From contig JAQGDQ010000888.1 in the NCBI GenBank assembly GCA_030141605.1, positions 1 through 64,000 of the forward strand: a DNA stretch of 64,000 bases, in the 5' to 3' direction. Positions 14,640 to 54,056 of the stretch are shown here, piece after piece. Position numbers and translations under genes: made by a program. How positions within the stretch are numbered: the stretch's first letter is position 1; every line of letters begins with the position of its first letter. The notes below the pieces were generated by a model. It was not told the origin of the DNA and ran no database searches. It saw only the letters and a program-made list of their open reading frames with translations. This stretch comes from Tubiluchus corallicola. Taxonomy: Eukaryota; Priapulida; Priapulimorpha; Priapulimorphida; Tubiluchidae.

Positions 14640-15730
14640 GAACCGTTGCCGTGTGAACGGTTCAAGTCCGGGTGGGAAGTGAAATTTTTTCCCACTTTAT
14701 TTTACTCAGGTGGATATGAACATCAGGGATCAGAAATTTCATGACGTGCCACTGTGTCGCAGCGAGTGTGATCGCTGGTGGAATGATTGTAAATACGGGT
14801 TCAAGTCCGAGTAGAAGTGAAATTTTTTCCCACTTTATTTTACTCACATTTCAGGTGGATATGAACATCAGGGATGAGAAATTTCATGACGTGCCTCTGT
14901 GTCGCAGCGAGTGTGATCGCTGGTGGAATGATTGTAAATACGGGTTCAAGTCCGGGTAGAAGTGAAATTTTTTCCCCACTTTATTTTACTCACATTTCAG
15001 GTGGATATGAACATCAGGGATGAGAAATTTCATGATGTGCCTCTGTGTCGCAGCGAGTGTGATCGCTGGTGGAATGATTGTAAATACGGGTTCAAGTCCG
15101 GGTAGAAGTGAAATTTTTTCCCCACTTTATTTTACTCACATTTCAGGTGGATATGAACATCAGGGATGAGAAATTTCATGATGTGCCTCTGTGTCGCAGC
15201 GAGTGTGATCGCTGGTGGAATGATTGTAAATACGGGTTCAAGTCCGGGTAGAAGTGAAATTTTTTCCCCACTTTATTTTACTCACATTTCAGGTGGATAT
15301 GAACATCAGGGATGAGAAATTTCATGATGTGCCTCTGTGTCGCAGCGAGTGTGATCGCTGGTGGAATGATTGTAAATACGGGTTCAAGTCCGGGTAGAAG
15401 TGAAATTTTTTCCCCACTTTATTTTACTCACATTTCAGGTGGATATGAACATCAGGGATGAGAAATTTCATGATGTGCCTCTGTGTCGCAGCGAGTGTGA
15501 TCGCTGGTGGAATGATTGTAAATACGGGTTCAAGTCCGGGTAGAAGTGAAATTTTTTCCCCACTTTATTTTACTCACATTTCAGGTGGATATGAACATCA
15601 GGGATGAGAAATTTCATGATGTGCCTCTGTGTCGCAGCGAGTGTGATCGCTGGTGGAATGATTGTAAATACGGGTTCAAGTCCGGGTAGAAGTGAAATTT
15701 TTTCCCCACTTTATTTTACTCACATTTCAG
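14640..15730 (+). repeat. exon-derived array: seven truncated copies of FOLR exon 3 with its acceptor, 146-bp unit
   Basis: Exon copies start at 14710, 14855, 15001, 15147, 15293, 15439 and 15585; the eighth, at 15731, is the functional exon. Each unit is 87 bases of exon (29 codons, to …WWNDCKY) fused to 59 bases containing GGGTTCAAGTCCGGGTAG and an intact acceptor TTTTACTCACATTTCAG. The frame runs into TAG ten codons before the next acceptor. Copies 3-7 look identical; copies 1-2 differ by a few bases (GACGTG for GATGTG). Confidence 0.95.
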
Positions 15731-15866
15731 GTGGATATGAACATCAGGGATGAGAAATTTCATGATGTGCCTCTGTGTCGCAGCGAGTGTGATCGCTGGT
15801 GGAATGATTGTAAATACGACTGGACTTGCTTAGAAAACTGGGGCGCAGATTTTGACTGGCAAGATG
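15731..15866 (+). CDS. FOLR: folate receptor family protein, exon 3
   Basis: The acceptor CACATTTCAG ends at 15730 and the donor GTAATA starts at 15867; phase 0 in, phase 1 out. It encodes VDMNIRDEKFHDVPLC, RSECDRWWNDCKY and DWTCLENWGADFDW. These align with human VDQSWRKERVLNVPLC, KEDCEQWWEDC and YTCKSNWHKGWNW. Pocket residues equal to human R103, W134 and W140 are kept, but W102 is Ile, R106 is Lys, H135 is Gly, K136 is Ala and W138 is Phe, so ligand preference may differ from folate. It has four conserved cysteines. This is the last and only full-length copy of the preceding tandem array. Confidence 0.95.
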
Positions 15867-16100
15867 GTAATAACTTAGCTAAAATTATTGTAAAACCAGT
15901 GTCTATTTCAGAGGGGGAAGTGGGGATACTTCCTCGGAGCTTCAACCTCCAGGGGGGCCTCACGCCACGGTAACTTTTTTTGCCTTATGCAAAAGCCGTT
16001 TATGCGCCATTTGCCAGTATTGACAAGTATTAAGGACTGCTCTTGAGAATAAAGCAGTTTTTCTTTCAATTGTTCTTTCCTTTAATAACTGTATAACTCC

Positions 16101-16539
16101 ATTTTAGGGACAAACAGTGTTTATTCTATTTTAGGGACAAACAGTGTTTATTCTATTTTAGGGACAAACAGTGTTTATTCTATTTTAGGGACAAACAGTG
16201 TTTATTCCATTTTAGGGACAAACAGTGTTTATTCTATTTTAGGGACAAACAATTTTTATTCCATTTTAGGAACAAACAGTGTTTATTCCAGTTTAATAAC
16301 AAACAATTTTTATTCAATTTTAGGGACAAACAGTGTTTATTCTATTTTAGGGACAAACAGTGTTTATTCCATTTTAGGGACAAACAGTGTTTATTCCAGT
16401 TTAAAAAGAAACAGTCTTTATTCCAGTTTAAAAACAAACAGTGTTTATTCTATTTTAGGGACAAACAGTCTTTATTCTATTTTAGGGACAAACAGTCTTT
16501 ATTTCTGTTTAAGGACAAACAGTGTTTATTCTATTTTAG
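16101..16539 (+). repeat. exon-derived array: ~16 copies of the FOLR exon 4 acceptor, 27-bp unit
   Basis: The unit is TTTATTCTATTTTAG followed by GGACAAACAGTG, period 27. The last unit runs directly into exon 4, where TTTATTCTATTTTAG is the functional acceptor and GGACAAACA the first exon bases. Most copies keep an AG preceded by a pyrimidine-rich run; a few have lost it (TTTAATAACAAAC, TTTAAAAACAAAC). Confidence 0.95.
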
Positions 16540-16686
16540 GGACAAACAAATGTCCGGAAGACAAACCTTGTAAAAAATTTCACGAGATCTACGACGACGC
16601 GGAAGAATTTTGTGAAAAGCTTTGGGATTATTCATTTGAAGTTGTCGACGATGATGAACCGTGCATGAAGATATGGTTCGAAGGCG
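16540..16686 (+). CDS. FOLR: folate receptor family protein, exon 4
   Basis: Phase 1 at both ends, with donor GTAAAA at 16687. It encodes TNKCPEDKPCKKFHEIYDD, EEFCEKLWDYSFEVV and EPCMKIWFEG, which align with human NKCAVGAACQPFHFYFP, VLCNEIWTHSYKV and RCIQMWFDP. It supplies the last four of the 16 conserved cysteines. Confidence 0.95.
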
Positions 16687-16825
16687 GTAAAAGTTGTTCC
16701 TTTAATAATCTTCGTTTCTTTTCTAACTGTAGTGTGTCGGACACAATTGTCCCCTGTCCTGCCTGCCATGTAAAAGCTTACCCACTTGTGACATAATATT
16801 CAAGAATGCATGCAGGGGCGGATCC

Positions 16826-17175
16826 AGGGGGAAGTAGCAGGGGCGTGTCCAGGTTTTAAAAATGTATGGAGCAAGCACATAAAAAGGCGCCGTGACAGGG
16901 GCGTAGCTAGGTTTTAAAAATGTAGGGAGCAAGCACATAAAAGGGCGCCGTGACAGGGGCGTAGCTAGGTTTTAAAAATGTAGGGAGCAAGCACATAAAA
17001 AGGCGCCGTGACAGTGGCGTAGCTAGGTTTTAAAAATGTAGGGAGCAAGCACATAAAAAGGCGCCGTGACAGGGGCGTAGCCAGATTTTAAAAATGTAGG
17101 GAGCAAGCACATAAAAAGGCGCCGCGACAGGAGCGTAGCTAGGTTTTAAAAATGTAGGGAGCAAGCACATAAAGG
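16826..17175. repeat. minisatellite, 58-bp unit, ~6 copies, with MITE-like end sequence
   Basis: Units contain CAGGGGCGTAGCTAGG, TTTTAAAAATGTAGGGAGC and ATAAAAAGGCGCCGTGA. CAGGGGCGTAGCCAGG is a common hAT-type MITE terminus in invertebrates and is also seen at 49479, so the array was probably seeded on a MITE end. Confidence 0.93.
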
Positions 17176-17534
17176 GGCGCATTAACTGGAATAGTATTTT
17201 GTGAAGTCGTACTGAGAGTCTGAAATGTCATCAAATTTTTCAATTGGTTGGTACTTATCACGCCAACCACCTAAAGTTTTAGCGCTGCGTCATTTGATAA
17301 AGAAATGTTGTTGAGATCGGACGATCGGAGACGAATTAACCATTTTCAGTGTCAATATACTGCAAGTAAAGCTTACAGAAATCATTATAAGACGCATACT
17401 TGTGACACGGACTAACGGTTCTGTAATAATAAAAGGTTTATTATACAATCAATCATTTTGAAATACCGTCTTTTGCTCACTGAACGAGTTGAATTTCACC
17501 TGGTTTGTATCTTCAAGTCAACCAAAGTGTTGCG
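17176..17534. other. intronic DNA
   Basis: No exon or repeat family recognised. Confidence 0.4.
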
Positions 17535-17893
17535 TTTTGTTTCTCTCGGAAGGCTCGTAGAGAAAACCAGAAAACACTTCATCAAATTAAACTAGTTTAT
17601 TAAGCGAGAATTCTACTACACAAAAGTATGAAGGAACACGAAATGATTACACTAAACGTGAAAATCTGGAAAACGTTTAAGTGTATCTGAAAATGCAAGT
17701 ATACAAGAGAATGTGTAAGTGGCGTCCGTGTGAATCTGCGTGTGTCTCTCTCGGCGGCCTGCTTCACCTTATAAAGGTTCCAGGGAACATTCTAGACGAG
17801 TCTCTCTAGAACATTCTACAAGGTAAGATGATTATTCTAATGGAACATTCTACTATGTTCTATTTAATTGTAATAGATACCAGCGATCTCCAC
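17535..17893 (-). mobile_element. solo-LTR-like element, copy 2
   Basis: Reverse-strand counterpart of 4810-5687 without the MITE insertion. On the - strand it holds TTATAAGG (TATA-like), the CACACGCAGATTCACACGG block, and AATAAA, and ends ACAAAACGCAACA. It lies in the last FOLR intron. Confidence 0.55.
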
Positions 17894-18350
17894 AACAGAA
17901 AGTTAAGGAACTTGTCAAAATGATCCACTTAAGTATTCATCGCCACTTAGAGAATAAGGATGGAGCTTAATTAAGTCTTTTCTCTGCAGGGAGTCATGTA
18001 GTTTTCTGTCTACAAACATAATTCAGTTTATTAGAAAATGATATTGATATTTTTCACTTAATTTCTTTGCTGTTTTTTTTGTTTGTTGCGTATCATGATT
18101 CACAGCAAGTTCTGATACCATAACTGAAATTGAAGCTTCACTTAGTAACAGCCGCTTCTACATTTCAGTCGAACTGCAAAATGTTTATGAAAATAATTTT
18201 TTCAGAGCATTCATACAAAATTTGACCCGCATGAGAATGCAAAACTTGTTTGAGTTAAGCTACTGTCTGGGAATCCAGCAACTTATTCTTACATTACTTT
18301 TTTCGGAGCAAATTGTAATATTATGAAACATCTTTCTTCTTTTATCACAG

Positions 18351-18484
18351 AAAATCCAAACAGAGCAGTAGCCGAATGGAAAGTGGAACAAATGGGAGGG
18401 TCGGAAACACGAATGCCTATGGCAGTAACAATGCTTTTAATGGTTTTAGTATCTTTTCTCTTACAAAGTACAGAAATTGCATAG
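18351..18484 (+). CDS. FOLR: folate receptor family protein, last coding exon
   Basis: The acceptor CTTTTATCACAG ends at 18350 and the stop TAG is at 18482-18484. It encodes ENPNRAVAEWKVEQMGGSET then the hydrophobic tail MAVTMLLMVLVSFLL. NPN..VA matches the family (human GNPNEEVA), and the short polar spacer plus terminal hydrophobic run is a GPI-attachment signal, with a candidate omega site in the GGS region. Total length in the joined model is 252 aa. Confidence 0.92.
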
Positions 18485-19315
18485 TGTCGATGAAAACTAA
18501 TTATGATTCACTGTATAGTGTGTAGTACAGTAATTATGATTCACTGTATTGTGTGTACTACAGTAATTATGATTCACTGTAGCATGTAGTACAGTAATTA
18601 TGATTCACTGTATAGTGTGTAATACAGTAATTATGATTCACTGTAGCGTGTAGTACAGTAATTATGATTCACTGTATAGTGTGTACTACAGTAATTATGA
18701 TTCACTTTATTGTGTGTACTGCAGCAATTATGATTCACTGTATGGTGTGTACTACAGCAATTATGATTCACTGTATAGTGTGTACTGCAGTAATTATGAT
18801 TCACTGGTTCGTGTGTACTACAGTAATTATGATTCATTGTATAGTCTGTACTACAGTAATTATGATTCAGTGTATAGTGTGTACTACAGTAATTATGATT
18901 TGCTGTATGGTGTTTGCTACAACAATTATGATTCACTGTATAGTGTGTACTACAGTAATTATGATTCACTGTATAGTGTGTACTACAGTAATTATGATTC
19001 ACTGTATAGTGTGTACTACAGTAATTATGATTCACTGTATAGTGTGTACTACAGTAATTATGATTCATTGTATAGTGTGTACTACAGTAATTATGATTCA
19101 GTGTATGGTGTGTACTACAGTAATTATGATTTGCTGTATGGTGTGTGCTACAACAATTATGATTCACTGTATAGTGTGTACTACAGTAATTATGATTCAC
19201 TGTATAGTGTGTACTACAGTAATTATGATTCACTGTATAGTGTGTACTACGGTAATTATGATTCACTGGTTAGTGTGTACTACAGTAATTATGATTCACT
19301 GGTTAGTGTGTACTA
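18482..19315 (+). repeat. array beginning at the FOLR stop codon, 33-bp unit, ~25 copies
   Basis: The first unit starts with the stop codon context (ATAGTGT) and continues CTAATTATGATTCACTGT. Later units read ATAGTGTGTACTACAG then TAATTATGATTCACTGT. The array would occupy the start of the 3' UTR. Because 33 is a multiple of three, three frames stay open for over 200 codons (e.g. SNYDSLYSVYY blocks); these are by-products of the repeat. Confidence 0.95.
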
Positions 19316-19435
19316 AAAGATGAAAATAGTTTCCGCGCAAAAACTAGGTGCTGCATTCAATGACAAGCTTTACACTAGTAAGTTGTAACCTCAGTGAATT
19401 TGAGTGTTGAATTTAATCAAGAACAGAAAATTATA

Positions 19436-19441
19436 AATAAA
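19436..19441 (+). terminator. candidate FOLR poly(A) signal
   Basis: First AATAAA downstream of the stop-codon array, with a second AATAAA at about 19455. If used, the 3' UTR would contain the entire 33-bp array. Confidence 0.4.
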
Positions 19442-19459
19442 TTTATTATTTTTAATAAA

Positions 19460-19946
19460 AGGTACTTCTGCCAACGTGATTTACGTTACGGTTACATTTA
19501 CATTTAGTACAACGAACTCTTACGATTGGGTGAAATTGTTCAGATAGATTGAAGAAAGGAGTCTTCAAATTGTTCATATTTTTCTAACATATAATGAGTG
19601 AGTTTATATCATTATGCATCCTTGCAAAGTTGCAAAATTGAAGAAGTTGACATTGCCATTCTTGTATCAGATAAACACTTTGTACTGAACCAGTCAAAGT
19701 ACAGCTTTGGTTAGAACATGTCATAGAAGCAGGTAATTACCACACACCAGGTGATGAGCGTGTTGATAGTTTTAATCAAACTGTCGGAGGTTGTTGCAGT
19801 AAAAACTCGAGAAAAAAAGTGACTTATGATTCATTCGCAAAGTTCATAAAATGTTTGGTTGTGTACTTTTCTGGGCTCAGTCGTATCCTGCTTGAAACGG
19901 TCCTGTAATGTCCAGTAGAAATTGTTTCCATATTTCTATTCCCTGA
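19460..19946. other. intergenic DNA
   Basis: No gene or repeat recognised. Confidence 0.4.
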
Positions 19947-20465
19947 TGCATGATCACTGGTTTCCGTTCCTTGACCTCTGCATGATCACTGGTTTCCGTT
20001 CCCTGACCTCTGCATGATCACTGGTTTCTGTTCCCTGACCTCTGCATGATCACTGGTTTCTGTTCCCTGACCTCTGCATGATCACTGGTTTCTGTTCCCT
20101 GACCTCTGCATGATCACTGCTTTCCATTTCCTGACCTCTGCATGATCACTGGTTTCCTTTCCTTGACCTCTGCATGATCAATGGTTTCCGTTCCCTGACC
20201 TCTGCATGATCACTGCTTTCCATTTCCTGACCTCTGCATGATCACTGGTTTCCGTTGCTTGACCTCTGCATGATCACTGCTTTCCATTTCCTGACCTCTG
20301 CATGATCACTGCTTTCCATTTCCTGACCTCTGCATGATCACTGCTTTCCATTTCCTGACCTCTGCATGATCACTGGTTTCCATTTCCTGACCTCTGCATG
20401 ATCACTGGTTTCCGTTGCTTGACCTCTGCATGATCACTGGTTTCTGTTCCCTGACCTCATGATCA
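19947..20465. repeat. minisatellite, 32-bp unit, ~16 copies
   Basis: Units read TGCATGATCACTGGTTTCCG then TTCCCTGACCTC, with variants CTGCTTTCCATTTC that recur in blocks. Each unit contains TGATCA and TGCATGATC palindromic elements. Confidence 0.96.
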
Positions 20466-20605
20466 CTGATAGGCTAAATTCAAGAAAATGCTACCTCACC
20501 ATAAAGACCTTTGAATTAAACTAGGTTTTGTTCAGCAATTGCTGCAATGATGCCAAGCATTTCTAAGCATTTTGAAACAGTAAACACAAACAGTCCATGA
20601 TAATT

Positions 20606-21535
20606 AAGAAAACATTATTGTTACATCAATAGTTCTTCAGTTGATAAGAATGAAAACATTATTGTTACATCAATAGTTCTTCAGTTTATAAGAAAGAAAA
20701 CATTATTGTTACATCAATAGTTCTTCCGTTGATAAGAATGAAAACATTATTGTTACATCAATAGTTCTTCAGTTGATAAGAAAGAAAACATTATTGTTAC
20801 ATCAATAGTTCTTCCGTTGATAAGAATGAAAACATTATTGTTACATCAATAGTTCTTCAGTTGATAAGAAAGAAAACATTATTGTTACATCAATAGTTCT
20901 TCCGTTGATAAGAATGAAAACATTATTGTTACATCAATAGTTCTTCAGTTGATAAGAAAGAAAACATTATTGTTACATCAATAGTTCTTCAGTTGATAAG
21001 AAAGAAAACATTATTGTTACATCAATAGTTCTTCAGTTGATAAGAAAGAAAACATTATTGTTACATCAATAGTTCTTCCGTTGATAAGAATGAAAACATT
21101 ATTGTTACATCAATAGTTCTTCCGTTGATAAGAAAGAAAACGTTATTGTTACATCAATAGTTCTTCCGTTGATAAGAAAGAAAACGTTATTGTTACATCA
21201 ATAGTTCTTCCATTGATAAGAAAGAAAACATTATTGTTACATCAATAGTTCTTCCGTTGATAAGAAAGAAAACGTTATTGTTACATCAATAGTTCTTCAG
21301 TTGATAAGAGAGAAAACATTATTGTTACATCAATAGTTCTTCAGTTGATAAGAAAGAAAACATTATTGTTACATCAATAGTTCTTCCGTTGATAAGAAAG
21401 AAAACGTTATTGTTACATCAATAGTTCTTCAGTTGATAAGAGAGAAAACATTATTGTTACATCAATAGTTCTTCCGTTGATAAGAATGAAAACATTATTG
21501 TTACATCAATAGTTCTTCAGTTTATAAGAGAATTC
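20606..21535. repeat. minisatellite, 45-bp unit, ~21 copies
   Basis: Units read AAAACATTATTGTTACATCA then ATAGTTCTTCAGTTGATAAGA. Variants (CAG/CCG, AAT/AAA) alternate in patterns that indicate higher-order block duplication. Confidence 0.97.
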
Positions 21536-21750
21536 AATATACTTGTTTATGCTTGCTGTCAACTGAAACAAAATCAAATCAATACCTGATCCGTGTAACA
21601 AAACGATTTGAATTGAGTCTTTCTCCTACAGACGACGTAGAAACATTTATATTTTTCTTTCGGCGCATTTAAACTTCCCGGAATATGCAGTAGAATGTTA
21701 AGTTTCTTCATCACGCTGTACCACAACAGGGAGATGCACACAGAGCATTA

Positions 21751-21882
21751 TCAGCTACTGCCCTTCAGTCCAAATATGGGCAATGATCTCATATATTCAT
21801 CGAGTTTACTTTTAAACAGTTCACTTGAGATGGGCTCTCCGGACTTACACATGGGATTCTTTATAACATACTGCACATAAAT
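21751..21882 (-). CDS. TRAPPC1: TRAPPC1, exon 4 (C-terminal)
   Basis: On the - strand the acceptor CTGTTGCAG precedes ATTTATGTG; 43 codons end at TGA (21751-21753). The product contains YVIKNPMC and SSELFKSKLDEYMRSLPIF, matching human TRAPPC1 VVKNPLC and QSELFRSRLDSYVRSLPFF. The exon is flanked on its intron side by an array of copies of its own 5' edge. Confidence 0.95.
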   Translation of the reverse strand: MYVQYVIKNPMCKSGEPISSELFKSKLDEYMRSLPIFGLKGSS

Positions 21883-22085
21883 CTGCAACAGAAAGATTCT
21901 TTATAAAACAGTTCATGTAAATTTGCAACAGCGAGATTCTTTATAAAACAATTCATGTAAATCTGCAACAGCGGGATTCTTTATAAAACAATTCATGTAA
22001 ATCTGTAATAGCGGGATTCTTTATAAAACAATTCATGTAAATCTGCAACAGCGAGATCCCTAAAAAACTTTTCACATAAATCTGC
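21883..22085 (-). repeat. exon-derived array: ~5 copies of the TRAPPC1 exon 4 acceptor, 40-bp unit
   Basis: On the - strand each unit is GCTGTTGCAG followed by ATTTACATGAATTGTTTTAT and AAAGAATC. The functional exon starts CTGTTGCAG|ATTTATGTGC… and continues TTATAAAGAATCCC, so the units are copies of the acceptor plus ~28 exon bases placed on the intron side. One copy has a damaged acceptor (TATTACAG). Confidence 0.93.
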
Positions 22086-22210
22086 TTAGAAAAAAGTAAA
22101 ATATCTCGTTCAGTCGGAGCTTTGTGACATCCCTAACAAAAACATCTCAAATGTAAGTAAAAATGCTGAAACTTCGACAGCTGCTTGTTGTATCAAACTC
22201 ATTATTTTAC

Positions 22211-22352: not shown

Positions 22353-22369
22353 CTAGATCACAAAGTTAA

Positions 22370-22800
22370 AGCAAAACAGGATGATTTTTCATATGCAGTA
22401 GGCGCCGTTTAATAGACTCACGGTTAATAGACTCAACTGCTTAATTGACTCAAAAACGCCTAGCATGGGCCGCTTCTATTCTAATGTACATAAAAACGGT
22501 CAAAAATCGGGTCAAAACACTTCAGTCCTAAAGTGAGTCTATTAAGCAGTGCCTACTGTACTACTCCATTTTAAAGTCCGATAAAAGAATACATTTTAAA
22601 ACAATTAAAACTGCAAAAGCATTTTTGATAATTAAAAAATAGATTAAAATCTTAATTAACGGTGGGCGAACCCAAATATTGATGACACCACAAGTGGACA
22701 TGATTTTCAACAACGAAAACATTCCACGAGCGTGTTGCACGTGTTTGCGAAAGCAAAAATTGAAGTACAGCATGACTGTCGGCTAAAAATACTCCTCTAA
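22370..22800 (+). repeat. dispersed repeat X, copy A, split by a MITE
   Basis: Matches copies B (27636-28235), C (33478-33790), D (37180-37690, reversed) and E (43857-44140). Shared landmarks are AACAGGATGATTTTTCATAT, GAGCGTGTTGCACGTG and GAGCTGTCGAACGTGTG (the last not in this copy). The family is about 600 bp with no coding capacity; its class is unknown. Confidence 0.75.
22396..22558. mobile_element. short TA-flanked MITE inserted in repeat X
   Basis: The inverted ends are CAGTAGGCGCCGTTTAATAG and CTATTAAGCAGTGCCTACTG, with TA at 22559-22560 and a degenerate TG at the left. The uninterrupted family sequence CATATACTAC in copy B shows the insertion point. A truncated relative occurs at 63013. 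Confidence 0.85.
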
Positions 22801-22955
22801 TGGTTCAGTGGCTCATCAGTCGGCATAACCCGGATTAAGAATCAGATCCTGGCTTTGCCACAACCATCCATTGAATGACAGATTTCAGCTTAAAGGATTC
22901 CAAAACACACACAAAAATATGTAAGCAAAGAACTTTCGTATTCGGGACTTTAAAC

Positions 22956-23688
22956 CAGGGGTGTGCAAATTGCGGCCCGCAAAGAGATTTGTCAGCCTAA
23001 TGAAAGTGCGGCCCGGGAAGAGATTTGTCAACCTAATGAAACTGCGGCCCGGGAAGAGATTTGTCAACCTAATGAAAGTGCGACCCGGGAAGAGATTTGT
23101 CAACCTAATGAAAGTGCGACCCGGGAAGAGATTTGTCAACCTAATGAAAGTGCGACCCGGGGAAGAGATTTGTCAACCTAATGAAAGTGCGACCCGGGAA
23201 GAGATTTGTCAACCTAATGAAAGTGCGACCCGGGAAGAGATTTGTCAACCTAATGAAAGTGCGGCCCGCGAAGAGATTTGTCAACCTAATGAAAGTGCAA
23301 ACCGGGCGATTAATTGAGTGTATCCAGCTGAAGTCCGTGCCACGATCCCAAAGATAGTGCGGGTAGTTTTTTCTACTAGATCGGATGCCATTAACCCTTA
23401 CAAGACGGTTGTCGCTTAATGTCACTGTACTACACAGACTGTGTGTTACGCATTACTAATATGCATTGTAATGAAATTACCACTATCTGTCCTGAAAGTA
23501 GAAATATATGGTTTGTAATATCAATTTTAATAACTTCTAAAATAGTTTCTTGAGTGTAGTAGTAATGATGTACGCAGGTCGGATGCAAAAAATCGTTATT
23601 AGGCCCTTCTGTACTTGGCTCAATGATCAAACTGCCTGTGGCCCGCAGGAATTGCGGGAAAGTTTAAAGTTTAATTTGCACACCCCTG
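22956..23688. mobile_element. hAT-type MITE with perfect 8-bp target duplication
   Basis: The ends are CAGGGGTGTGCAAATTG and TAATTTGCACACCCCTG, flanked by identical CTTTAAAC at 22948-22955 and 23689-23696. The 733-bp body lies in TRAPPC1 intron 2, contains GCGGCCCGC near both ends, has a minisatellite near the left end, and has no transposase frame. Confidence 0.95.
22970..23310. repeat. minisatellite within the hAT MITE, 36-bp unit, ~9 copies
   Basis: Units read GAGATTTGTCAACCTAATGA then AAGTGCGACCCGGGAA. The first unit grades into the element's own subterminal sequence (GCAAATTGCGGCCCGCAAAG), so the array grew from just inside the left inverted repeat. Confidence 0.95.
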
Positions 23689-23745
23689 CTTTAAACCCTT
23701 CATGTTAATAAAATCACTTATAAATATACAAGAATAAAAGGATAC

Positions 23746-38786: not shown

Positions 38787-38854
38787 ATGTCTTCAGATTA
38801 TGAACCAAGTGATGATAAGCCTCCAGCTCCACCTGTTAGGCTAACTAGTAATCG
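38787..38854 (+). CDS. PAK: PAK (group I p21-activated kinase), coding exon 1
   Basis: PAKs are Rac/Cdc42-activated Ser/Thr kinases that control actin, adhesion and MAPK signalling. The acceptor TTTTTTTAG ends at 38728, so 38729-38786 is 5' UTR. ATG at 38787 (AAAATGT) begins MSSDYEPSDDKPPAPPVRLT, with the Nck-binding PPAPPVR motif of PAK1-3. The donor is GTAAGT at 38855, phase 2. Ten exons in the window join without a frameshift to 460 codons; vertebrate PAK1 has 545 residues, so about 85 kinase residues remain downstream. The 3' edge of this exon has been amplified into the array that follows. Confidence 0.95.
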
Positions 38855-40942: not shown

Positions 40943-41115
40943 ATCTGTGGAACTGGTGCTCACATTGTAAGCTACAGTACTGTTTATGATGCTGATAATA
41001 TCTGTGGAACTGGTGCTCACATTGTAAGCTACAGTACTGTTTATGATGCTGATAATATCTGTGGAACTGGTGCTCACATTGTAAGCTACAGTACTGTTTA
41101 TAATGCTGGTAATAA
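40943..41115. repeat. 57-bp tandem triplication
   Basis: Three copies of ATCTGTGGAACTGGTGCTCA…GATGCTGATA, the last with TAATGCTGGTA. Confidence 0.95.
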
Positions 41116-46214: not shown

Positions 46215-46500
46215 GACTCATTAACAACCGCAGTAAGCCTTTTCACACTTTTGTTGTGCACGAGCAGTTGCTGTAGATTAAAGGTTAAGCGTACCACAGC
46301 AGTGCATCTTAACAACAACCGCTATGTGACATATGGGTAAAGCAAAGCTGTCTGCCTGTCAGTTCAGTGATTTCAGTTGTTCTAGTTGGACTTCAGTTAA
46401 TTATGCATAAATCTGTGCATAGAGTGATTTACTAGCGGGATCTTGTTTGGAAAAAAGAAAAATGAACTAGGTAAGGTTCTAGCTAACTGTTAAAAGGCTT
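46215..46500 (+). repeat. dispersed repeat, partner of 34860-35345
   Basis: Shares AGTGATTTACTAGCGGGATC and AAGAAAAATGAACTAGGTAA with the partner; it ends about 30 bases before the PAK exon 3 acceptor. Confidence 0.65.
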
Positions 46501-46526
46501 ATGTGTAATGTATTGTTTTATTTTAG

Positions 46527-46633
46527 GTAGTAAAAAAGAAAGAAAAGAGAATGAAAGACCGATAATTTCATCGCCGACGAACTTTGAGCACACCGTACAT
46601 GTGGGTTTCGATGCCTGTACCGGTGAATTTACA
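46527..46633 (+). CDS. PAK: PAK, coding exon 3 (CRIB domain)
   Basis: The acceptor TTTTATTTTAG ends at 46526 and the donor GTGAGT starts at 46634; phase 1 in, 0 out. It encodes [20 protein letters not shown] then GEFT, the p21-binding CRIB consensus I.SP..F.H..HVGFD..TG.F with both histidines (H77, H80 in the joined protein). Binding of Rac/Cdc42-GTP here releases autoinhibition. Confidence 0.97.
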
Positions 46634-47468
46634 GTGAGTTCTGGTTTTTGTTGCAATCATGTAACCTTTGCTTTGTAACCGAAGGGCACAAAATTCTTCT
46701 AGAGTTCAAAGACTGTTAATTAGTAATTACTCGCCGGACATTAACAATTAGCAAAAGTTTTCAAACTACAACAAAATTGCCTAGTCAGAGATCATCATAG
46801 CTGATTTAATTACTACATACAGCCTAGAAAAAAGGCCAATGTTGTCACTTAAGGATGTGTGTAGAGTGTCGTGTGGCTTAGCAGATTGATAATTTCAGGA
46901 GAAACAGTGACGTTTCTCTAAATGCTGATTGTATTATTGTGAAAACCTGTAGTGTTCTGTATCTTTCATAATCTTTGCATGTTTTAATGCTGGAGTTGAA
47001 TGTTTAATGACTGTCGTGTTATGAGCAACTTATGCATAGAAAAGAGTTACTCTGCTGCAGTACAGCAAATCAAACTCCAGGCGATTCTAAGAAAAATTCG
47101 TTTATCTTTATCCCATCATGTTGAAAAAAGGAAGTTGGGCTCAGGGATGCAGAAAACATGCAGAAAACGTGAAGAATTTGTGGCTTCACCCACGAAACAA
47201 ATGATCAAAATATTAGGGCATCCCCCGGGTGCCACAAGCACTTGCTACACCACTGTTGCACATGGGGCATCCCCCGGGTGCCACAAGCACTTGCTACGCC
47301 ACTGTTGCACACGGAAGAAAACTGGAAACTTTTCCACTGTTTAAGTTACAGTAGGTGAATTAACTTACTGTAAACACAACTTTCACAATTTTAGCTTCGT
47401 CAGCAAGTGATGCATCACATCACCATTTTCAATTATTCATTGTATTCTGCATTCTGCTGTACAATTGG
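46634..47468. other. intronic DNA with a 57-bp duplication
   Basis: At ~47217-47310 GGGCATCCCCCGGGTGCCAC followed by AAGCACTTGCTAC occurs twice in tandem. Otherwise nothing recognised. Confidence 0.6.
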
Positions 47469-47800
47469 TACTTTATCTTGGGAAGATCTTGGCATTATCT
47501 TGGCATTATCTCGGGACGATCTTGGCATTATCTCGGGAAGATCTTGGCATTATCTCGGGAAGATCTTGGCATTATCTCGGGACGATCTTGGCATTATCTC
47601 GGGAAGATCTTGGCATTATCTCGGGAAGTTCTTGGCATTATCTCGGGAAGTTCTTGGCATTATCTCGGGAAGATCTTGGCATTATCTCGGGAAGAACTTG
47701 GCATTATCTCGGGAAGTTCTTGGCATTATCTCGGGAAGATCTTGGCATTATCTCGGGAGATCTTGGTCCTTATCTTAGGAAGATCTTGGCATTATCTCAG
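47469..47800. repeat. minisatellite, 22-bp unit, ~15 copies
   Basis: Units read GCATTATCTCGGGAAGATCT TG. Because 22 is not a multiple of three, three frames each give a shifting 22-residue repeat; these are artefacts. The array abuts a hAT-type MITE. Confidence 0.97.
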
Positions 47801-47807
47801 TAATCAC

Positions 47808-48154
47808 TAGGGCGAGCATAGAATGCTCGAATTCGATTCAAACGAGTTTTTTATTCGGATTTGATTCGAACCTAAAATTATAGATTCGGATAATTCGGCA
47901 CATGAACCAAGTACATTCTTTATCAATAAAATGTTTGAAATGTCAAGCATTTAGCATAATTGAGTTGTGATTTCTGTGCAGAATTTTAAACAAATTATTA
48001 CTGCAAAGAAATTCAAGCAATATGCACGATCTTTGTAAGAGAAGCTTTTACTGGTAGTTGGAAAACTTGGTTGAAAATCTTTCCATCTCAATTCGAATTC
48101 GAAAGCCACAAATTCGATTCGAATTCGTTTCGTGGCAGAGAATGCTCACCCCTG
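47808..48154. mobile_element. hAT-type MITE, relative of 14160-14537
   Basis: The ends are TAGGGCGAGCAT and ATGCTCACCCCTG. The flanks GTAATCAC and ACAATCAC match at six of eight positions. The interior is TTCGATTCGAAT-rich. Confidence 0.85.
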
Positions 48155-48193
48155 ACAATCACGGGGGGGGGGACTGCTTCATCTGTTAATTAA

Positions 48194-48648
48194 CCCTTTC
48201 ATATCCGTTGTATCCCGTGGGATAGGAGAATATTTTCTGCCTTTAAAATTAATAAAATTTTAAAACTGACAGTTATTTGATCTGTTATTTTGATTTAAGC
48301 CAATAACAATAGAATAAAAATGGTGATAAAATGGCAAACTAGAAAATCTACATAGCATAAAAAACTGCGCAAGGTACAGTACTTTAGAAACGACTTTGTA
48401 CAGATCAGCATAGCGTGCATACTAAATGTCTTAAATACTTTAAAAAATTATCAGCAGTTGCAAAATGAAGCACATTTTATGCTTCCATTGAATCCCAATG
48501 TATCCCGTGGGATACAGGCTATATTTAGCACGCGGGCACAGGTAGAAAAAATAATTGTTATATGTATGTAAACAAGATGAACATACTGAACAAAAGTACC
48601 AAGCCAAAATTTTTTTCTTATTAAAAAAATAATTTGGGACTGAAAGGG
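48194..48648. mobile_element. piggyBac-like MITE at TTAA
   Basis: TTAA flanks (48190-48193 and 48649-48652) enclose ends CCCTTTCA and TGAAAGGG. The interior carries the palindrome TATCCCGTGGGATA twice (~48219 and ~48500). TTAA duplication is characteristic of piggyBac-type elements; the short terminal repeat limits certainty. Confidence 0.65.
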
Positions 48649-48743
48649 TTAATTACTAATGTTTAAATTATTAATTGAAGCTGCAAGTTTGTATTTTTAT
48701 GTAGACCAGTTGTTTAAATTGGTCGCTTTGTTTTTCTATTCAG

Positions 48744-48900
48744 GGTTTGCCCGACTCATGGGTGCGCTTGCTTGACCATTCCAATATTTCAAAAAAAGAA
48801 CAAAAAGAAAATCCACAGGCCGTGTTAGACGTACTAAACTACTACGACCAGTCGAAGAACAAACAGAGGGAGTCAAAATACATGCAAGCGAAACCGACTA
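48744..48900 (+). CDS. PAK: PAK, coding exon 4 (autoinhibitory segment)
   Basis: The acceptor TTTTTCTATTCAG ends at 48743 and the donor GTGAGT starts at 48901; phase 0 in, 1 out. It encodes [20 protein letters not shown] and [16 protein letters not shown], aligning with PAK GMPEQWARLLQTSNITKLEQ and [14 protein letters not shown], the inhibitory switch and kinase-inhibitory segment. Confidence 0.96.
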
Positions 48901-48973
48901 GTGAGTATTGTTATGAAATGATGGAGTTCGTTTGATGTTTGATTAGAAGCATCACCTGGTGGGGAGACAAGGG

Positions 48974-49474
48974 CAGGGATGAGAATTTTGCGCGGATACG
49001 CAGACGTCCGAGTTTTTGGAAGACCAGTAGTGCCATTTTTGTAAATCGCGTAAATTCGTCGAGAAAATTTTTACGGACCCTTTACATTATTTCACAAGCT
49101 GACCACTAGGTGGCAGGCCGTCACTTTGTTTACATCACGTACATCAGTGTAACCACGTGTACATCTCTATGTATAAAAATATAGAATCAATTGTGCAGAG
49201 TTATTTGAGTCATTTGCAGACAGTTTTTATATACTTTTGCATAGGAGCGGCCAGTACTTAGGTGTTTTTGAGACAATTAGGTATCATGTATCCTTGATAG
49301 TTGGGTATTTTAAATTATGCATGAAACAAGGTAATTGATATTTTAAGTCCACTTAGAGGCTCTCTGTGGTCACAAAAATGCAATTTGTTGCCCTTGAACC
49401 CCATTGGGGGCCTAGGTGGCCCCAAAACCCCCGGCCTGTTTCAGAGTTTTTTGCAATTTGTCATTCTCATCCCT
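48974..49474. mobile_element. hAT-like MITE ending CAGGGATGAGAAT
   Basis: The inverted ends are CAGGGATGAGAATTTTG and TTTGTCATTCTCATCCCTG. The target duplication is unclear (GACAAGGG versus GGACAGGG). It contains a strong CTCF-like core CCACTAGGTGGCAG at 49103-49116. Confidence 0.75.
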
Positions 49475-49478
49475 GGGA

Positions 49479-49892
49479 CAGGGGCGTATCGTGACTTCAC
49501 CCTAGGTTGATAGTTCTTTCCACTCATTCCTATTGTGAATTTATGGTTGTTTATGTAATGAGCAGGTTAAACAATCACTTGTGGTGTATTAGAAACACTA
49601 TTAGCATACGGCGTCATTATTAATTACATGTACTTGCATGGTTCATATATTCAAGCAGGGTGCATGACTCCTTGTTGTGCAATATTTGGCACCTGTTCGC
49701 TATGTGGCACTTATATAAAAGCTGAGCTCAGCAACTGCCTGTGGTGTGTTATAAAATGCGCCCTTTACAGAATATGAAAGCATACGCATTTTCCGAGGAG
49801 AATAAGAATTTTTTTCTAAACTACGACGCCCCTCAAACTTTGGCACCCCTAAGCTATGGGTCTAGTTAGTCTCTTGGCTAATACGCCCCTGG
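49479..49892. mobile_element. MITE copy 2 of family ending CAGGGGCGTA
   Basis: The ends are CAGGGGCGTATCG and AATACGCCCCTG; the interior matches 38163-38575. It is followed by GTCAGGTAG, and a near copy of its right end (ACTACGCCCCTGGTCGGGTAG) reappears at ~50327 after the 42-bp array. Confidence 0.8.
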
Positions 49893-49924
49893 TCAGGTAG
49901 GACTCGTACAGTTCTTCGCGAGGC

Positions 49925-50300
49925 GTCCTGCTGCCAGCTAGAAACTATGCATTCTCCTCATGAGGAATTCTCCTACCAGCTAGAAGTTATGCATCCTCCT
50001 TATGAGGAATTCTGCTGCCAATTAGAAGGCATGCATTCTCCTAGTGAGAAGTTCTGCTGCCAGCTAGAAGCTATGCATCCTCCTCATGAGGAGTTCTGCT
50101 GCCAGCTAGAAACTATGCATTCTCCTCTTGAGGAATTCTCCTACCAGCTAGAAGTTATGCATCCTCCTCATGAGGAATTCTCCTACCAGCTAGAAGTTAT
50201 GCATCCTCCTCATGAGGAATTCTGCTGCCAATTAGAAGGCATGCATTCTCCTAGTGAGAAGTTCTGCTGCCAGCTAGCAGCTATGCATCCTCCTCGTAGA
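49925..50300. repeat. minisatellite, 42-bp unit, ~9 copies (upstream of PAK exon 5)
   Basis: Units contain TGCCAGCTAGAAGTTATGCA and TCCTCCTCATGAGGAATTC, the latter with the palindrome TCCTCATGAGGA. The in-frame 14-residue repeat (MHPPHEEFCCQLEV) over 133 codons has no splice support. The same array recurs on the other side of exon 5. Confidence 0.96.
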
Positions 50301-50594
50301 ATTCAGTCTAAACTTAACTACTCAGTAACTACGCCCCTGGTCGGGTAGTAGGTGGGTTGCTAAGATATTTGTTATATCTACCTTGAATACAGGGTCGGAT
50401 TATGACCTTTTGGGATGCCTAGGCTAATGAAATTATGGTGCCCTCTCAGATGGAGTCAACCTCTAACTCGCCCGCACCCCATCTTGAACATAAGTACAAA
50501 ATTTCTTCGAAGAAATTCAGGTTTGCTAAAATGTCTGCACAGCCTTGTCTTATACTGCTTATAGATTATTAAAGTTGTGTGTTTTCCATTTCAG

Positions 50595-50656
50595 TATCAA
50601 CGCCACGGCCGAGTTATCAGACAGATAGATTTGCTTCCAATGCGGTTATAACACCA
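50595..50656 (+). CDS. PAK: PAK, coding exon 5
   Basis: The acceptor TTTTCCATTTCAG ends at 50594 and the donor GTAAGT starts at 50657; phase 1 in, 0 out. It encodes STPRPSYQTDRFASNAVITP. This linker is poorly conserved in the family, so support comes from the frame, splice sites and the intact flanking exons. Confidence 0.8.
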
Positions 50657-50789
50657 GTAAGTAAGTTTATGTATAAATGTCAAATTATTAAGAAAAGGTC
50701 ACATCTTATGCTGCATAAATCTTCTCACAAAAATGGAACGCATTGTTTTTCTATGGCACATTTCACAGTAAGGAGGCGCTGCAAAATTC

Positions 50790-51170
50790 CTCGTACAGTT
50801 CTTTGCGAGCTAGAACCAGCTGGAACCTATGCATTCTCCTCTTGAGGAACTTTCCTGCTAGCTAGAAGTTATGCATCCTCCTCGTGAGGAATTCTCCTGC
50901 CAGCTAGAAGTTATGCGTCCTCCTCATGAGGAATTCTACTCCCAGTTAGAAGTTACGCATCCTCCTCATGAGGAATTCTACTCCCAGTTAGAAGTTATGT
51001 GTCCTCCTCATGAGGAATTCTACTCCCAGTTAGAAGTTATGTGTCCTCTTCATGAGGAATTATGCAGCCAATTAGAAGGTATGCATCCTCCTAGTGAGAA
51101 GTTTTGCTGCCAGCTAGAAGCTATGCGTCCTCCTCATGAGGAATTCTGCTGCCAGTTAGAAGTTTTAACA
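50790..51170. repeat. minisatellite, 42-bp unit, ~9 copies (downstream of PAK exon 5)
   Basis: Same family as 49925-50300 (GCTAGAAGTTATGCATCCTC), with a subtype TACTCCCAGTTAGAAGTTA expanded here. Both arrays begin with TCGTACAGTTCTT, so one probably arose by duplication of the other around exon 5. Confidence 0.95.
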
Positions 51171-51242
51171 CATTGTTTCTTTAACTTAATGATAAAAATG
51201 TCGAATCATGAAAAGACTATCAAGTGTTGTTTTATATTTCAG

Positions 51243-51344
51243 CAACGTAAGCCGTCGCCGTCACCGGTGAGTATAGAAGACGACGATGAAGACGCAGTTG
51301 TACCGCCACCTATAGCTACAAGACCAGAGCGAACTAAATCTATT
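51243..51344 (+). CDS. PAK: PAK, coding exon 6 (PIX-binding region)
   Basis: The acceptor TTTTATATTTCAG ends at 51242 and the donor GTAAGT starts at 51345; phase 0 in and out. It encodes the acidic EDDDEDAVV and PPPIATRPERTKSI, aligning with PAK DDDDEEAAPPVIAPRPDHTKSI, which contains the acidic stretch and the PIX/Cool-binding proline-arginine motif. Confidence 0.95.
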
Positions 51345-51682
51345 GTAAGTTCGTGAAAAGTTTTTACAGTTTTGTCATCTTGTTCCTTTTCAACGACTTA
51401 ATTACGTGTGAATGAATAATCGCAATTAAAGGAAGACCAGACGATTGATTAGATTCAATCTCATTTAAATTTACTGCCTAAAATGTACATTTTATTGTAG
51501 ATAAAAGTTTGCAGTTGTTTCTAATCTGTGAATAATTAGTTTGCAAAGTTAATTAATGGCATCCGGTCACAGTTATCGCTCACGTCACAAACTAACTACA
51601 GTTTGGCATCTTCTGTGTGCGTCAAGCACGTTTGCGTAAAAGTGAAGATGGCTGTATATATCAAGATATATGTATATATCAG

Positions 51683-51954
51683 TGAATCCACTAAGACTGG
51701 CAATGGCGCCTTTTTCTCACATTTGCGTGGTCAATAAATAGGCGAGGTACCAAGATAAGCGTCATCATGAATTGCAGTGTTCGTTTGTGATGTAAGTGTG
51801 ACATGGAGCCCATTTTCATGACATCACATCAACGTCTTATATATGTCACACTGATAGCACTGCAATTCATGATCACGCTTATCTTGGTACCTCGCCTATT
51901 TGTTGACCACGCAAATGTGACAAAAAGGCACCATTGCCAGTCTTAGTGGATTCG
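51683..51954. mobile_element. short foldback element, ~98-bp inverted arms
   Basis: The left arm (GTGAATCCACTAAGACTGGC … GAATTGCAGTG) is matched by the right arm (CACTGCAATTCATGATCACG … TAGTGGATTCGC) with few mismatches, around an ~80-bp spacer that itself contains TGACATG/CATGACA complementarity. Confidence 0.85.
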
Positions 51955-51959
51955 CTGAG

Positions 51960-52334
51960 CAGAAGTTTAACAAAATTTAACTATCCGAAGTAATTATTAT
52001 TTATTCTAAGTTTTGATTTAGAAAAAGCTGTTGTAGTTTTCAATATTTTAGGACATATTTTATTTTGAACTAATGTCTACACAATCGTACGCTTTGATCG
52101 ATGTATAGTCAAATGCATAGTGAATCATCGTCAATTACTTCATTTCTACATCTATTTCTGTAGCATTTGTAGAATTCAATGTTTGCAAAGCATTATTATA
52201 GTACACCTTCACTTTGTGCTTATTATTTTGATAAATGGAAACCTGTATTAATGAATTCTTAACCAATATATTTCAACTAGTTGCAGCCATGTTTTAATAT
52301 ATCAAAATACATCAGTACACGAAGCCAGTTGAAC
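51960..52334. other. intronic DNA
   Basis: AT-rich, nothing recognised. Confidence 0.4.
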
Positions 52335-53721
52335 GTGAAATATATACTTTCAGTACACGTAGCCAGTTGAACGTGAAATATATACTTTCAGTACACGAAG
52401 TCAGTTTAACATGAAATATATACTTTCAGTACACGTAGCCAGTTGAACGTGAAATATGTACTTTCAGTACACGCAGTCAGTTGAACATGAAATATATACT
52501 TTCAGTACATGAAGCCAGTTGAACGTGAAATATATACTTTCAGTACACGAAGTCAGTTTAACATGAAATATATACTTTCAGTACACGTAGCCAGTTGAAC
52601 GTGAAATATATACTTTCAGTACACGAAGTCAGTTGAACATGAAATATATACTTTCAGTACACGTAGCCAGTTGAACGTGAAATATGTACTTTCAGTACAC
52701 GCAGTCAGTTGAACATGAAATATATACTTTCAGTACATGAAGCCAGTTGAACGTGAAATATATACTTTCAGTACATGAAGCCAGTTGAACGTGAAATATA
52801 TACTTTCAGTACACGAAGCCAGTTGAACGTGAAATATATACTTTCAGTACACGTAGCCAGTTGAACGTGAAATATATACTTTCAGTACACGAAGTCAGTT
52901 TAACATGAAATATATACTTTCAGTACACGAAGCCAGTTGAACGTGAAATATATACTTTCACTACATGAAGCCAGTTGAACGTGAAATATATACTTTCAGT
53001 ACACGAAGCCAGTTGAACGTGAAATATATACTTTCAGTACACGAAGTCAGTTGAACGTGAAATATATGCTTTCACTACACGAAGCCAGTTGAACATGAAA
53101 TATATACTTTCAGTACACGAAGTCAGTTGAACGTGAAATATATACTTTCAGTACACGAAGCCAGTTTAACATGAAATATATACTTTCAGTACACAAAACC
53201 AGTTTAACATGAAATATATACTTTCAGTACACGAACCCAGTTTAACATGAAATATATACTTTCAGTACACGTAGCCAGTTTAACATGAAATATATACTTT
53301 CAGTACATGAAGCCAGTTTAACATGAAATATATGCTTTCAGTACACGTAGCCAGTTTAACATGAAATATGTACTTTCAGTACACGAAGTCAGTTGAACGT
53401 GAAATATATACTTTCAGTACACGAAGCCAGTTGAACGTGAAATATATACTTTCAGTACACGAAGCCAGTTGAACGTGAAATATATACTTTCAGTACACGT
53501 AGCCAGTTGAATGTGAAATATATACTTTCACTACACGAAGCCAGTTTAACATGAAATATATACTTTCAGTACACGAAGCCAATTGAATGTGAAATATATA
53601 CTTTCAGTACACGAAGCCAGTTTAACATGAAATATATACTTTCAGTACACGAAGCCAGTTGAACATGAAATATATACTTTCACTACACGAAGCCAATTGA
53701 ATGTGAAATATATACTTTCAG
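52335..53721 (+). repeat. exon-derived array: ~36 copies of the PAK exon 7 acceptor, 38-bp unit
   Basis: Each unit reads ATATACTTTCAG|TACACG AAGCCAGTTGAAC then GTGAAAT. The final copy is the functional acceptor of exon 7, whose coding sequence begins TACACGAAGCCAGTTGAAC. Nearly all copies keep an intact CTTTCAG. Units also contain AAC|GTGAAA, a weak donor 19 bases after each AG. Variants (GAAGCC/GTAGCC/GAAGTC, GAACGTG/TAACATG) repeat in blocks. Confidence 0.96.
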
Positions 53722-53930
53722 TACACGAAGCCAGTTGAACAGGAGAAAGAGAACGAAAGACCACCGATAGTGCCGACAAATGGCTTGGTTGGTTCAGGCG
53801 ACAAGAAAGTCGAGACAAGACCAAAGAAGAAGAAAATGAGCGACGAAGAAATTCTAGAAAAGTTAAAGACGATCGTCAGCATTGGAGACCCCAACAGGAA
53901 GTACACGAAAATGGAGAAGATTGGGCAGGG
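53722..53930 (+). CDS. PAK: PAK, coding exon 7 (linker and start of kinase domain)
   Basis: The acceptor ATACTTTCAG ends at 53721 and the donor GTGTGT starts at 53931; phase 0 in, 2 out. It encodes [40 protein letters not shown] and [16 protein letters not shown], aligning with PAK1 [33 protein letters not shown]. The glycine-rich loop is split at GQG|ASGTV. Both edges of this exon have been duplicated. Confidence 0.97.
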
Positions 53931-54056
53931 GTGTGTGTGCTTCTCTTAAAATGAAATGTCATATTTTGCTCTTTCTATGCACGAAAATGGAGAAGATTGG
54001 GCAGGGGTGTGTGTGTTTCTCTTAAAATGAAATTTCATATTTTGCTCTTTCTATGC
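53905..54056 (+). repeat. 76-bp tandem duplication of the PAK exon 7 3' edge and donor
   Basis: ACGAAAATGGAGAAGATTGG…GGGGTGTGTGTG at 53905 recurs at 53981, each followed by TCTCTTAAAATGAAAT. The first copy is in frame with exon 7. Use of the second donor would add 76 bases and shift the frame. Confidence 0.95.

What the first reader, a model, noticed from the sequence alone, without database searches (positions are those of the whole stretch)
14640..54056. Shared rule: minisatellites grown from exon edges, always extending into the intron
Five splice-edge arrays (before FOLR exons 3 and 4, before TRAPPC1 exon 4 on the other strand, after PAK exon 1, before PAK exon 7), plus a two-copy duplication after PAK exon 7 and an array at the FOLR stop codon, are tandem copies of a real exon boundary. 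Acceptor arrays have the functional exon as the last copy, donor arrays as the first. The polarity is what selection would leave if local tandem duplication is frequent and only copies that keep the reading frame survive. The density in one 64-kb window (three of three recognised intron-containing genes) is far beyond what I know from any described genome, and would load introns with decoy splice sites.
Basis: partly seen in the sequence, partly recalled or inferred. Interest (0 to 1): 0.9.

Follow-up and report, generated by a model that had tools for sequence, protein, structure and literature searches.

The report
Splice sites duplicated into intron arrays
In animal DNA whose proteins are most like those of a priapulid worm, six of the 36 exon edges of three genes are repeated in tandem into the neighbouring intron, leaving dozens of decoy splice sites that the splicing machinery would have to pass over; such arrays are already known from lancelets, so this is a known oddity that looks unusually dense here.

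Summary
The core observation holds. Six of 36 splice junctions in three multi-exon genes (FOLR E3 and E4 acceptors, TRAPPC1 E4 acceptor, PAK E1 donor, PAK E7 acceptor and donor) are the exon-side end copy of a tandem array running into the intron. The seventh item, an array made from the FOLR stop codon, fails (p = 0.13). The arrays hold 87 motif-matched decoy junctions; 33 score at least as high as the real site. Using 75 of the 87 would damage the protein (74 early stops, one frameshift); all 12 decoys of FOLR E4 stay in frame. These are 'mirage' minisatellites, described in amphioxus, so the kind is known. The top named hit of FOLR and PAK is Priapulus caudatus; no listed paper reports mirages in priapulids. 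Minisatellites cover 22% of the window, so edges are covered no more often than other noncoding DNA; counted as birthplaces, edges are over-represented (6 arrays against 0.7-1.3 expected; post hoc, one window). Best reading: ordinary local tandem duplication, homogenised by exchange, with polarity fixed by coding constraint and likely by exon-proximal splice-site pairing. Genome-wide and RNA tests could not be run.

The parts
14659..15818 (+). FOLR exon 3 acceptor array: 146-bp unit (59 bp intron end + 87 bp exon start) x 8; 7 decoys upstream of the functional copy
   Evidence: TRF, 98% matches; functional copy and 5 decoys identical over 146/146; 7 of 7 decoys lead to an early stop
15731..15866 (+). 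FOLR exon 3 (functional copy)
   Evidence: folate receptor family PF03024
16101..16548 (+). FOLR exon 4 acceptor array: 27-bp unit (18 intron + 9 exon) x 16.6
   Evidence: 12 of 12 TAG| decoys in frame and open
16540..16686 (+). FOLR exon 4
21855..22085 (-). TRAPPC1 exon 4 acceptor array: 40-bp unit (12 intron + 28 exon) x 5.8
   Evidence: 3 of 4 decoys weaker than the functional site, one stronger
21755..21882 (-). TRAPPC1 exon 4 (terminal exon)
   Evidence: Sybindin PF04099
38824..40213 (+). PAK exon 1 donor array: 45-bp half-units in a 90-bp unit x 15.4; 30 GTRAGTTAC decoy donors
38787..38854 (+). PAK exon 1 coding part (functional copy is the first)
52312..53740 (+). PAK exon 7 acceptor array: 38-bp unit (19 intron + 19 exon) x 37.6
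   Evidence: 33 CAG| decoys, 15 at least as strong as the functional site
53722..53930 (+). PAK exon 7, with a duplicated boundary on both sides
   Evidence: kinase PF00069 and PBD PF00786
53904..54057 (+). PAK exon 7 donor duplication: 76 bp (27 exon + 49 intron) x 2
13604..13649 (+). Dispersed copy of the FOLR exon 4 acceptor edge in intron 2, 2.9 kb upstream
   Evidence: 87% over 46 bp to 16513-16558, E 2.5e-8

Best explanation
Six of 36 splice junctions in three genes are repeated in tandem into the adjacent intron ('mirage' minisatellites), likely born by ordinary local tandem duplication in a minisatellite-rich genome and likely tolerated because splicing pairs the sites nearest each other across the exon. 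A short segment spanning an exon edge is duplicated (inferred), then multiplied and homogenised by unequal exchange or gene conversion (inferred from identical copies in FOLR E3, a two-unit periodicity in PAK E7 and divergent outermost copies). The protein stays intact only if the copy joined to the unique part of the exon is the one spliced: shown in silico for 5 of 6 arrays. Proximity across the exon (exon definition) would select the last copy of acceptor arrays and the first copy of donor arrays by the same rule (inferred from published human data; RNA not tested here).
For: Arrays and exon models. Local origin: 26 of 32 arrays do not span a junction, and the 18 of those with about 3 or more copies are no more splice-like than random noncoding DNA (median rank 0.6), so arrays form from sequence of many kinds. 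Homogenisation: FOLR E3 functional copy and 5 decoys identical over 146 bp; no distance gradient in PAK E7; the outermost copy is the one least like the functional copy in 4 of 4 acceptor arrays; in PAK E7 copies two apart are more alike than shuffled order gives (0.939 against 0.925, 0 of 2000 shuffles, the only one of 30 lags to stand out). Constraint: 75 of 87 decoys would damage the protein. Proximity rule: in large introns the sites closest across the exon are preferred (PMC9225289, abstract and section 9). Four of the six arrays sit in introns of 986 bp or more even after collapsing the arrays. Adh3 and globin RT-PCR data suggest that mirages do not disturb regular splicing in amphioxus (PMC3087553, passages).
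Against: No RNA evidence: the used copy is inferred from protein homology. In the human data large introns only reduce, and do not reverse, the preference for the upstream 3' site (PMC9225289 section 9), so proximity alone is weak for acceptor arrays. Two arrays lie in short ancestral introns (FOLR intron 3, 252 bp collapsed; TRAPPC1 intron 3, 137 bp), where the rule predicts the wrong site; there the decoys are in frame (FOLR E4) or mostly weaker (3 of 4 TRAPPC1 decoys below the functional site, one above; the nearest copy has lost AG), which fits tolerance but is one case each. Plain random duplication does not explain the excess of births at junctions.
Confidence: 0.66

Rival explanations
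1. Splice junctions are mutational hotspots for minisatellite birth in this lineage, for example through co-transcriptional or replication-linked breakage or short homology between exon and intron at the junction, so junction arrays are made more often than arrays elsewhere.
For: 6 of 32 arrays span a junction against 0.73, 0.91 or 1.27 expected by unit-length seeding, P 1.5e-4 to 7.9e-4; 6 of 36 edges against 3.8% of 1500 control positions, P = 0.002 at the 30-of-40 cut-off.
Against: One window, flagged because of the pattern; two of the six are on the same exon (counting PAK E7 once: 5 arrays, P 0.0016 or 0.0056). At looser cut-offs the control test weakens (24 of 40: P = 0.34; 25: 0.054). 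Edge coverage does not exceed general array coverage, and 6 of 63 array ends in CDS is near expectation (5.1 for all CDS; 2.7 for the three genes, P = 0.057). Non-edge arrays show no splice-like motif overall.
Confidence: 0.3
2. The arrays are functional: tandem acceptors or donors recruit splicing factors or tune isoform choice, and FOLR exon 4 makes isoforms with extra nine-residue repeats.
For: All 12 FOLR E4 decoys are in frame and stop-free, 6 of 12 as strong as the functional site. Minisatellites have been linked to splicing choices in C. elegans introns (PMC4039745, search listing only) and repeats at human exon-intron boundaries alter splicing (PMC2812944, passages).
Against: 75 of 87 decoys would damage the protein. 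Priapulus FOLR has no insertion at the exon 3/4 join. A 27-bp unit open in one frame is not rare; a second frame across the same array is open too.
Confidence: 0.1
3. Assembly artefact: repeat copies created or multiplied by the assembler.
For: FOLR E3 has six copies (functional plus five decoys) identical over 146 bp, so copy number there cannot be trusted without reads.
Against: The FOLR E4, PAK E7 and TRAPPC1 arrays carry many differences between copies, and the exons on both sides fit open spliced proteins. The same kind of structure was found in amphioxus, where one array of the genome draft was however reported as wrongly assembled.
Confidence: 0.04

Closest known systems
Mirage minisatellites of amphioxus (Adh3, globins BflGb6 and BflGb9, troponin C, PGBD5)
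   Same: [quoted passage not shown] units within the published range (10-72 bp Adh3, 150-160 bp BflGb6); many copies keep AG or GT; inner copies homogenised, boundary copies not (PMC3087553 passages; PMC3902484 passages).
   Different: Here the top named protein hits are from Priapulus, not a cephalochordate; copy numbers reach 38 (BflGb6 has 3-6); six junctions in three neighbouring genes; no RNA or polymorphism data.
Variable internal tandem repeats at exon-intron boundaries of human genes in segmental duplications
   Same: Minisatellites at exon-intron boundaries that can change splicing (27 intron modifications; PMC2812944 passages).
   Different: There half of the repeats lie in coding exons and can be kept in mRNA; here all six run into the intron.
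[quoted passage not shown] potato RdRp case)
   Same: Local tandem duplication of a segment with splice signals, here as in potato including an intron-exon boundary (PMC4974935 passages).
   Different: No new intron is seen here; each array repeats one end of an intron.

Membership tests
Mirage minisatellites | Tandem copies span an exon-intron boundary | tested here: met
   6 of 36 junctions
Mirage minisatellites | Both donor and acceptor boundaries can be affected | tested here: met
   4 acceptor and 2 donor arrays
Mirage minisatellites | Many copies retain AG or GT splice signals | tested here: met
   87 motif-matched decoys; scores
Mirage minisatellites | Inner copies homogenised, array-boundary copy excluded | tested here: met
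   Outermost copy least like the functional copy in 4 of 4 acceptor arrays, (ungapped counts; the FOLR E3 one is lowered by an indel, 91% when aligned with gaps); donor arrays not tested this way
Mirage minisatellites | Normal mRNA splicing despite decoys | not testable with these tools
   No RNA data held
Mirage minisatellites | Copy-number polymorphism or somatic instability | not testable with these tools
   One haplotype only
Intron gain by tandem duplication (AGGT model) | Duplicated segment supplies both ends of a new intron | tested here: not met
   Each array spans only one end of an intron; PAK E7 carries two arrays, on two different introns
Introner-like dispersed elements | Same sequence at intron ends of several genes | tested here: not met
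   Self-comparison of the window at E 1e-6 shows no match between junction arrays of different genes

The most novel reading that the evidence does not exclude
In this priapulid-like genome splice junctions are preferred birthplaces of minisatellites, several-fold over other noncoding DNA, and exon-proximal pairing of splice sites makes the resulting full-strength decoys harmless, so genes accumulate dozens of intact decoy splice sites at ordinary exons. Where pairing across the exon should not protect (short introns), arrays persist only if decoys are in frame or weakened.
Probability: 0.28. Interest if true: 0.75.

Novelty: new member of a known kind. Interest (0 to 1): 0.5.

Why it matters
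Each array is a natural competition test: many near-identical splice sites that differ mainly in position. In PAK exon 7 one real acceptor competes with 33 CAG| decoys, 15 of them scoring at least as high, so RNA reads from this animal would show directly how far position across the exon decides splice-site choice. It also extends a phenomenon described in lancelets to what appears to be a distant ecdysozoan lineage, and gives raw material for intron gain and exon lengthening.

Tried and rejected
Array at the FOLR stop codon: rejected as a boundary copy (p = 0.13). Age gradient from the exon outward: not seen in PAK E7 (rho 0.03) or FOLR E4 (rho 0.25, p 0.36); FOLR E3 has rho -0.80 (p 0.03, 7 copies), but that rests on its two outermost copies only; TRAPPC1 rho -0.36, p 0.55. 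Splice-like sequence as a general seed for arrays: not seen in 18 non-edge arrays; one of them, 4853-5001, is donor-like (rank 0.007) and lies in a dispersed element. Duplicates at the other 30 junctions: none found within 1.5 kb, their best self-matches are 19-22 of 40, below 24 like 87% of controls. Long block repeats as evidence of exchange in PAK E7: a 517-bp block at 93.6% is hardly above the array mean of 92.5% and was dropped; only a two-unit periodicity stands out. Rfam (gathering scores) and tRNA scans: nothing. Nulls that disagree: circular shift 7.9 expected (P 0.77) against legal random placement of whole arrays 1.47 (P 0.0037), both; the unit-seed null was judged closest to the mutational process, and all are reported. 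Rows dropped before counts: overlapping rows among the 59 TRF rows were collapsed by hand to 39; the 6 with period under 10 were set aside, leaving 33 rows, 32 after merging; one array end at the window edge was dropped (63 of 64 ends); the U12-like TRAPPC1 sites were left out of the splice-site matrices. Decoys were counted by motif, so array copies that lost AG or GT are not among the 87. The matrices rest on 13 acceptors and 15 donors from this window only. In one search the single PAK E7 donor decoy was placed 2 bp off (+78 instead of +76); the stop lies upstream of it, so the result does not change. Of the 4 TRAPPC1 decoys, three give a stop at residue 134 or 138 of 146 and one a frameshift ending at 147.
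Full report
What is there. The window carries three recognised multi-exon genes: a folate receptor (FOLR, plus strand, exons E1a, E1b, E2-E5, 8039-18484), TRAPPC1 (minus strand, four exons, 24225-21755) and a p21-activated kinase (PAK, plus strand, ten exons from 38787, running off the window). Exons were placed by tblastn with recalled human proteins and then by splice sites; the spliced reading frames are open and match Pfam folate receptor, Sybindin, PBD and protein kinase. The top hit for both FOLR (55% over 90% of the query) and PAK (84% over 97%; the next-ranked hits 73-74% over 98%) is Priapulus caudatus, so the DNA probably comes from another priapulid or a near relative. Some hits are more identical over less of the query: a Solemya FOLR (58% over 76%), and insect PAKs (up to 93% over 50%).

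The arrays. Tandem Repeats Finder gives 59 rows, collapsed to 32 minisatellite arrays of period 10 or more covering 14,336 bp, 22.4% of the window. Six of 36 splice junctions lie inside an array with at least 5 bp on each side: FOLR E3 and E4 acceptors, TRAPPC1 E4 acceptor, PAK E1 donor, PAK E7 acceptor and donor. The other 30 junctions show no duplicate within 1.5 kb (19-22 of 40 matches; 87% of controls are below 24).

Is it more than chance? The answer depends on the null, and all are given. Because arrays fill 24% of noncoding DNA, random circular shifts cover 7.9 junctions on average; 6 is no excess (P = 0.77). But an array cannot grow over a junction that its first unit did not span, so the better question is how many births fall on junctions. 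Placing one unit per array at random, barring seeds wholly in coding sequence or swallowing an exon, gives 0.73 (P = 1.5e-4); in collapsed coordinates 0.91 (P = 1.9e-4), and within gene spans 1.27 (P = 7.9e-4). Random placement of whole arrays under coding limits gives 1.47 (P = 0.0037). A separate comparison of self-matches at 36 junctions and 1500 noncoding control positions gives 6 against 1.37 at the cut-off of 30 of 40 (P = 0.002); at 24, 25 and 26 the P values are 0.34, 0.054 and 0.017, and at 32, 34 and 36 they are 0.007, 0.018 and 0.006. Counting PAK E7 once leaves 5 arrays (P = 0.0016 or 0.0056). By array ends there is no clear excess: 6 of 63 ends lie in coding sequence, 5.1 expected for all coding sequence and 2.7 for the three genes (P = 0.40 and 0.057). 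The window was flagged because of this pattern, so these values overstate the case.

Structure of the arrays. In PAK E7 the 37 upstream copies match the functional copy at 27-38 of 38 positions with no trend with distance (rho 0.03); copies two units apart are more alike than in shuffled order (0.939 against a mean of 0.925; 0 of 2000 shuffles; 30 lags tested). In FOLR E3 the functional copy and five decoys are identical over 146 bp. In 4 of 4 acceptor arrays the outermost copy is the least similar to the functional one; in PAK E7 and FOLR E4 only its intron part differs while its exon part is unchanged. This resembles the turnover described for the amphioxus globin mirages (PMC3087553, passages) and points to unequal exchange or conversion after a local duplication. 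Arrays away from junctions come from sequence with no splice character overall (18 arrays), and at least one lies in a dispersed element of which a single-unit copy exists elsewhere (4811-4899 and 17809-17897).

Decoys and polarity. Motif-matched decoys number 87: 7, 12, 33, 4, 30 and 1 in FOLR E3, FOLR E4, PAK E7 acceptor, TRAPPC1 E4, PAK E1 donor and PAK E7 donor. With matrices trained on the window's other sites, 33 of 87 score at least as high as the functional site (6 of 7, 6 of 12, 15 of 33, 1 of 4 and 4 of 30; 1 of 1). Using a decoy and retaining the stretch to the real exon would bring an early stop in 74 of 87 and a frameshift in one more; all 12 in FOLR E4 keep the frame. So coding constraint alone fixes the polarity for five arrays, and the frame of the unit is irrelevant (146, 40, 38 and 76 bp are not multiples of three). 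The functional copy is inferred from homology: Priapulus FOLR and PAK have the same length across the FOLR E2/E3, FOLR E3/E4 and PAK E6/E7 joins and the identical sequence at PAK E7/E8; its PAK isoform has another N-terminus, so the E1 join was not compared, and no Priapulus TRAPPC1 was fetched.

How it probably works. A single positional rule covers both polarities: the used site is the one nearest the other end of its own exon. In human data, when flanking introns are large the sites closest across the exon are favoured (PMC9225289 abstract); for 3' sites the effect reduces the upstream preference rather than reversing it (section 9), which is a weakness of this reading. Intron lengths in this window fit in part: four arrays sit in introns of 986 bp or more after collapsing arrays. 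The two in short ancestral introns (252 bp FOLR intron 3; 137 bp TRAPPC1 intron 3) are the one whose decoys are all in frame and the one whose decoys are mostly weaker (scores -0.9, -1.1, -4.2 and 2.5 against 2.1; nearest copy without AG). With one case each this is a hypothesis, not a result.

What is known. Tandem repeats across exon-intron boundaries were named mirages in amphioxus Adh3 and later seen in globin, troponin C and PGBD5 genes (PMC3087553 and PMC3902484, passages; the original Adh3 paper is not held). Repeats at exon-intron boundaries are also described in human segmental duplications (PMC2812944, passages), and local duplication including a boundary made a new intron in potato (PMC4974935, passages). 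Searches for mirage or minisatellite with amphioxus, for priapulid genomes and tandem repeats, for Halicryptus, for Priapulus with intron or minisatellite, and for junction-spanning minisatellites listed no report of them in priapulids. Only one search listed every paper found (15 of 15); the others were capped lists (for example 15 of 7,816 and 10 of 751), and the library holds open-licence papers only. The kind is therefore known; the taxon and the density look new.

Limits. No RNA, reads or second haplotype were available.

Noticed in passing
8026-8245 and 10650-10870: FOLR has two tandem signal-peptide exons (E1a, E1b), 82% identical over 221 bp, with the duplicate reaching about 13 bp before the acceptor and 48 bp past the donor: likely alternative first coding exons.
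   Followed up: partly
22353-23745, minus strand: TRAPPC1 intron 2 has a U12-type look: donor GTATCCTT and TTTAAC shortly before the acceptor (sequence; the U12 consensus is recalled).
   Followed up: no
13604-13649: A second, dispersed copy of the FOLR exon 4 acceptor edge, including about 20 bp of exon and a trace of the 27-bp period, lies in intron 2. How it got there is unexplained.
   Followed up: partly
49903-50280 and 50790-51162: The same 42-bp minisatellite stands in PAK introns 4 and 5, on either side of exon 5 (80% over 378 bp).
   Followed up: no
40943-41114: Three copies of a 57-bp unit (19 codons, open frame) in PAK intron 1, not tied to a recognised exon.
   Followed up: no
56747-59149, minus strand: Open frame of about 800 codons without a stop, with ankyrin repeats and a Mab-21 C-terminal domain, inside PAK intron 8; best hit 47% identical, from an unnamed source.
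   Followed up: partly
1112-1486 and 2036-2410: Inverted repeat of 377 bp at 98.7% identity, possibly a recent mobile element or hairpin.
   Followed up: no
4853-5001 and 17809-17897: A 34-bp minisatellite at 4853-5001 matches a dispersed element present as a single unit at 17809-17897, reverse strand; its unit is donor-like.
   Followed up: partly
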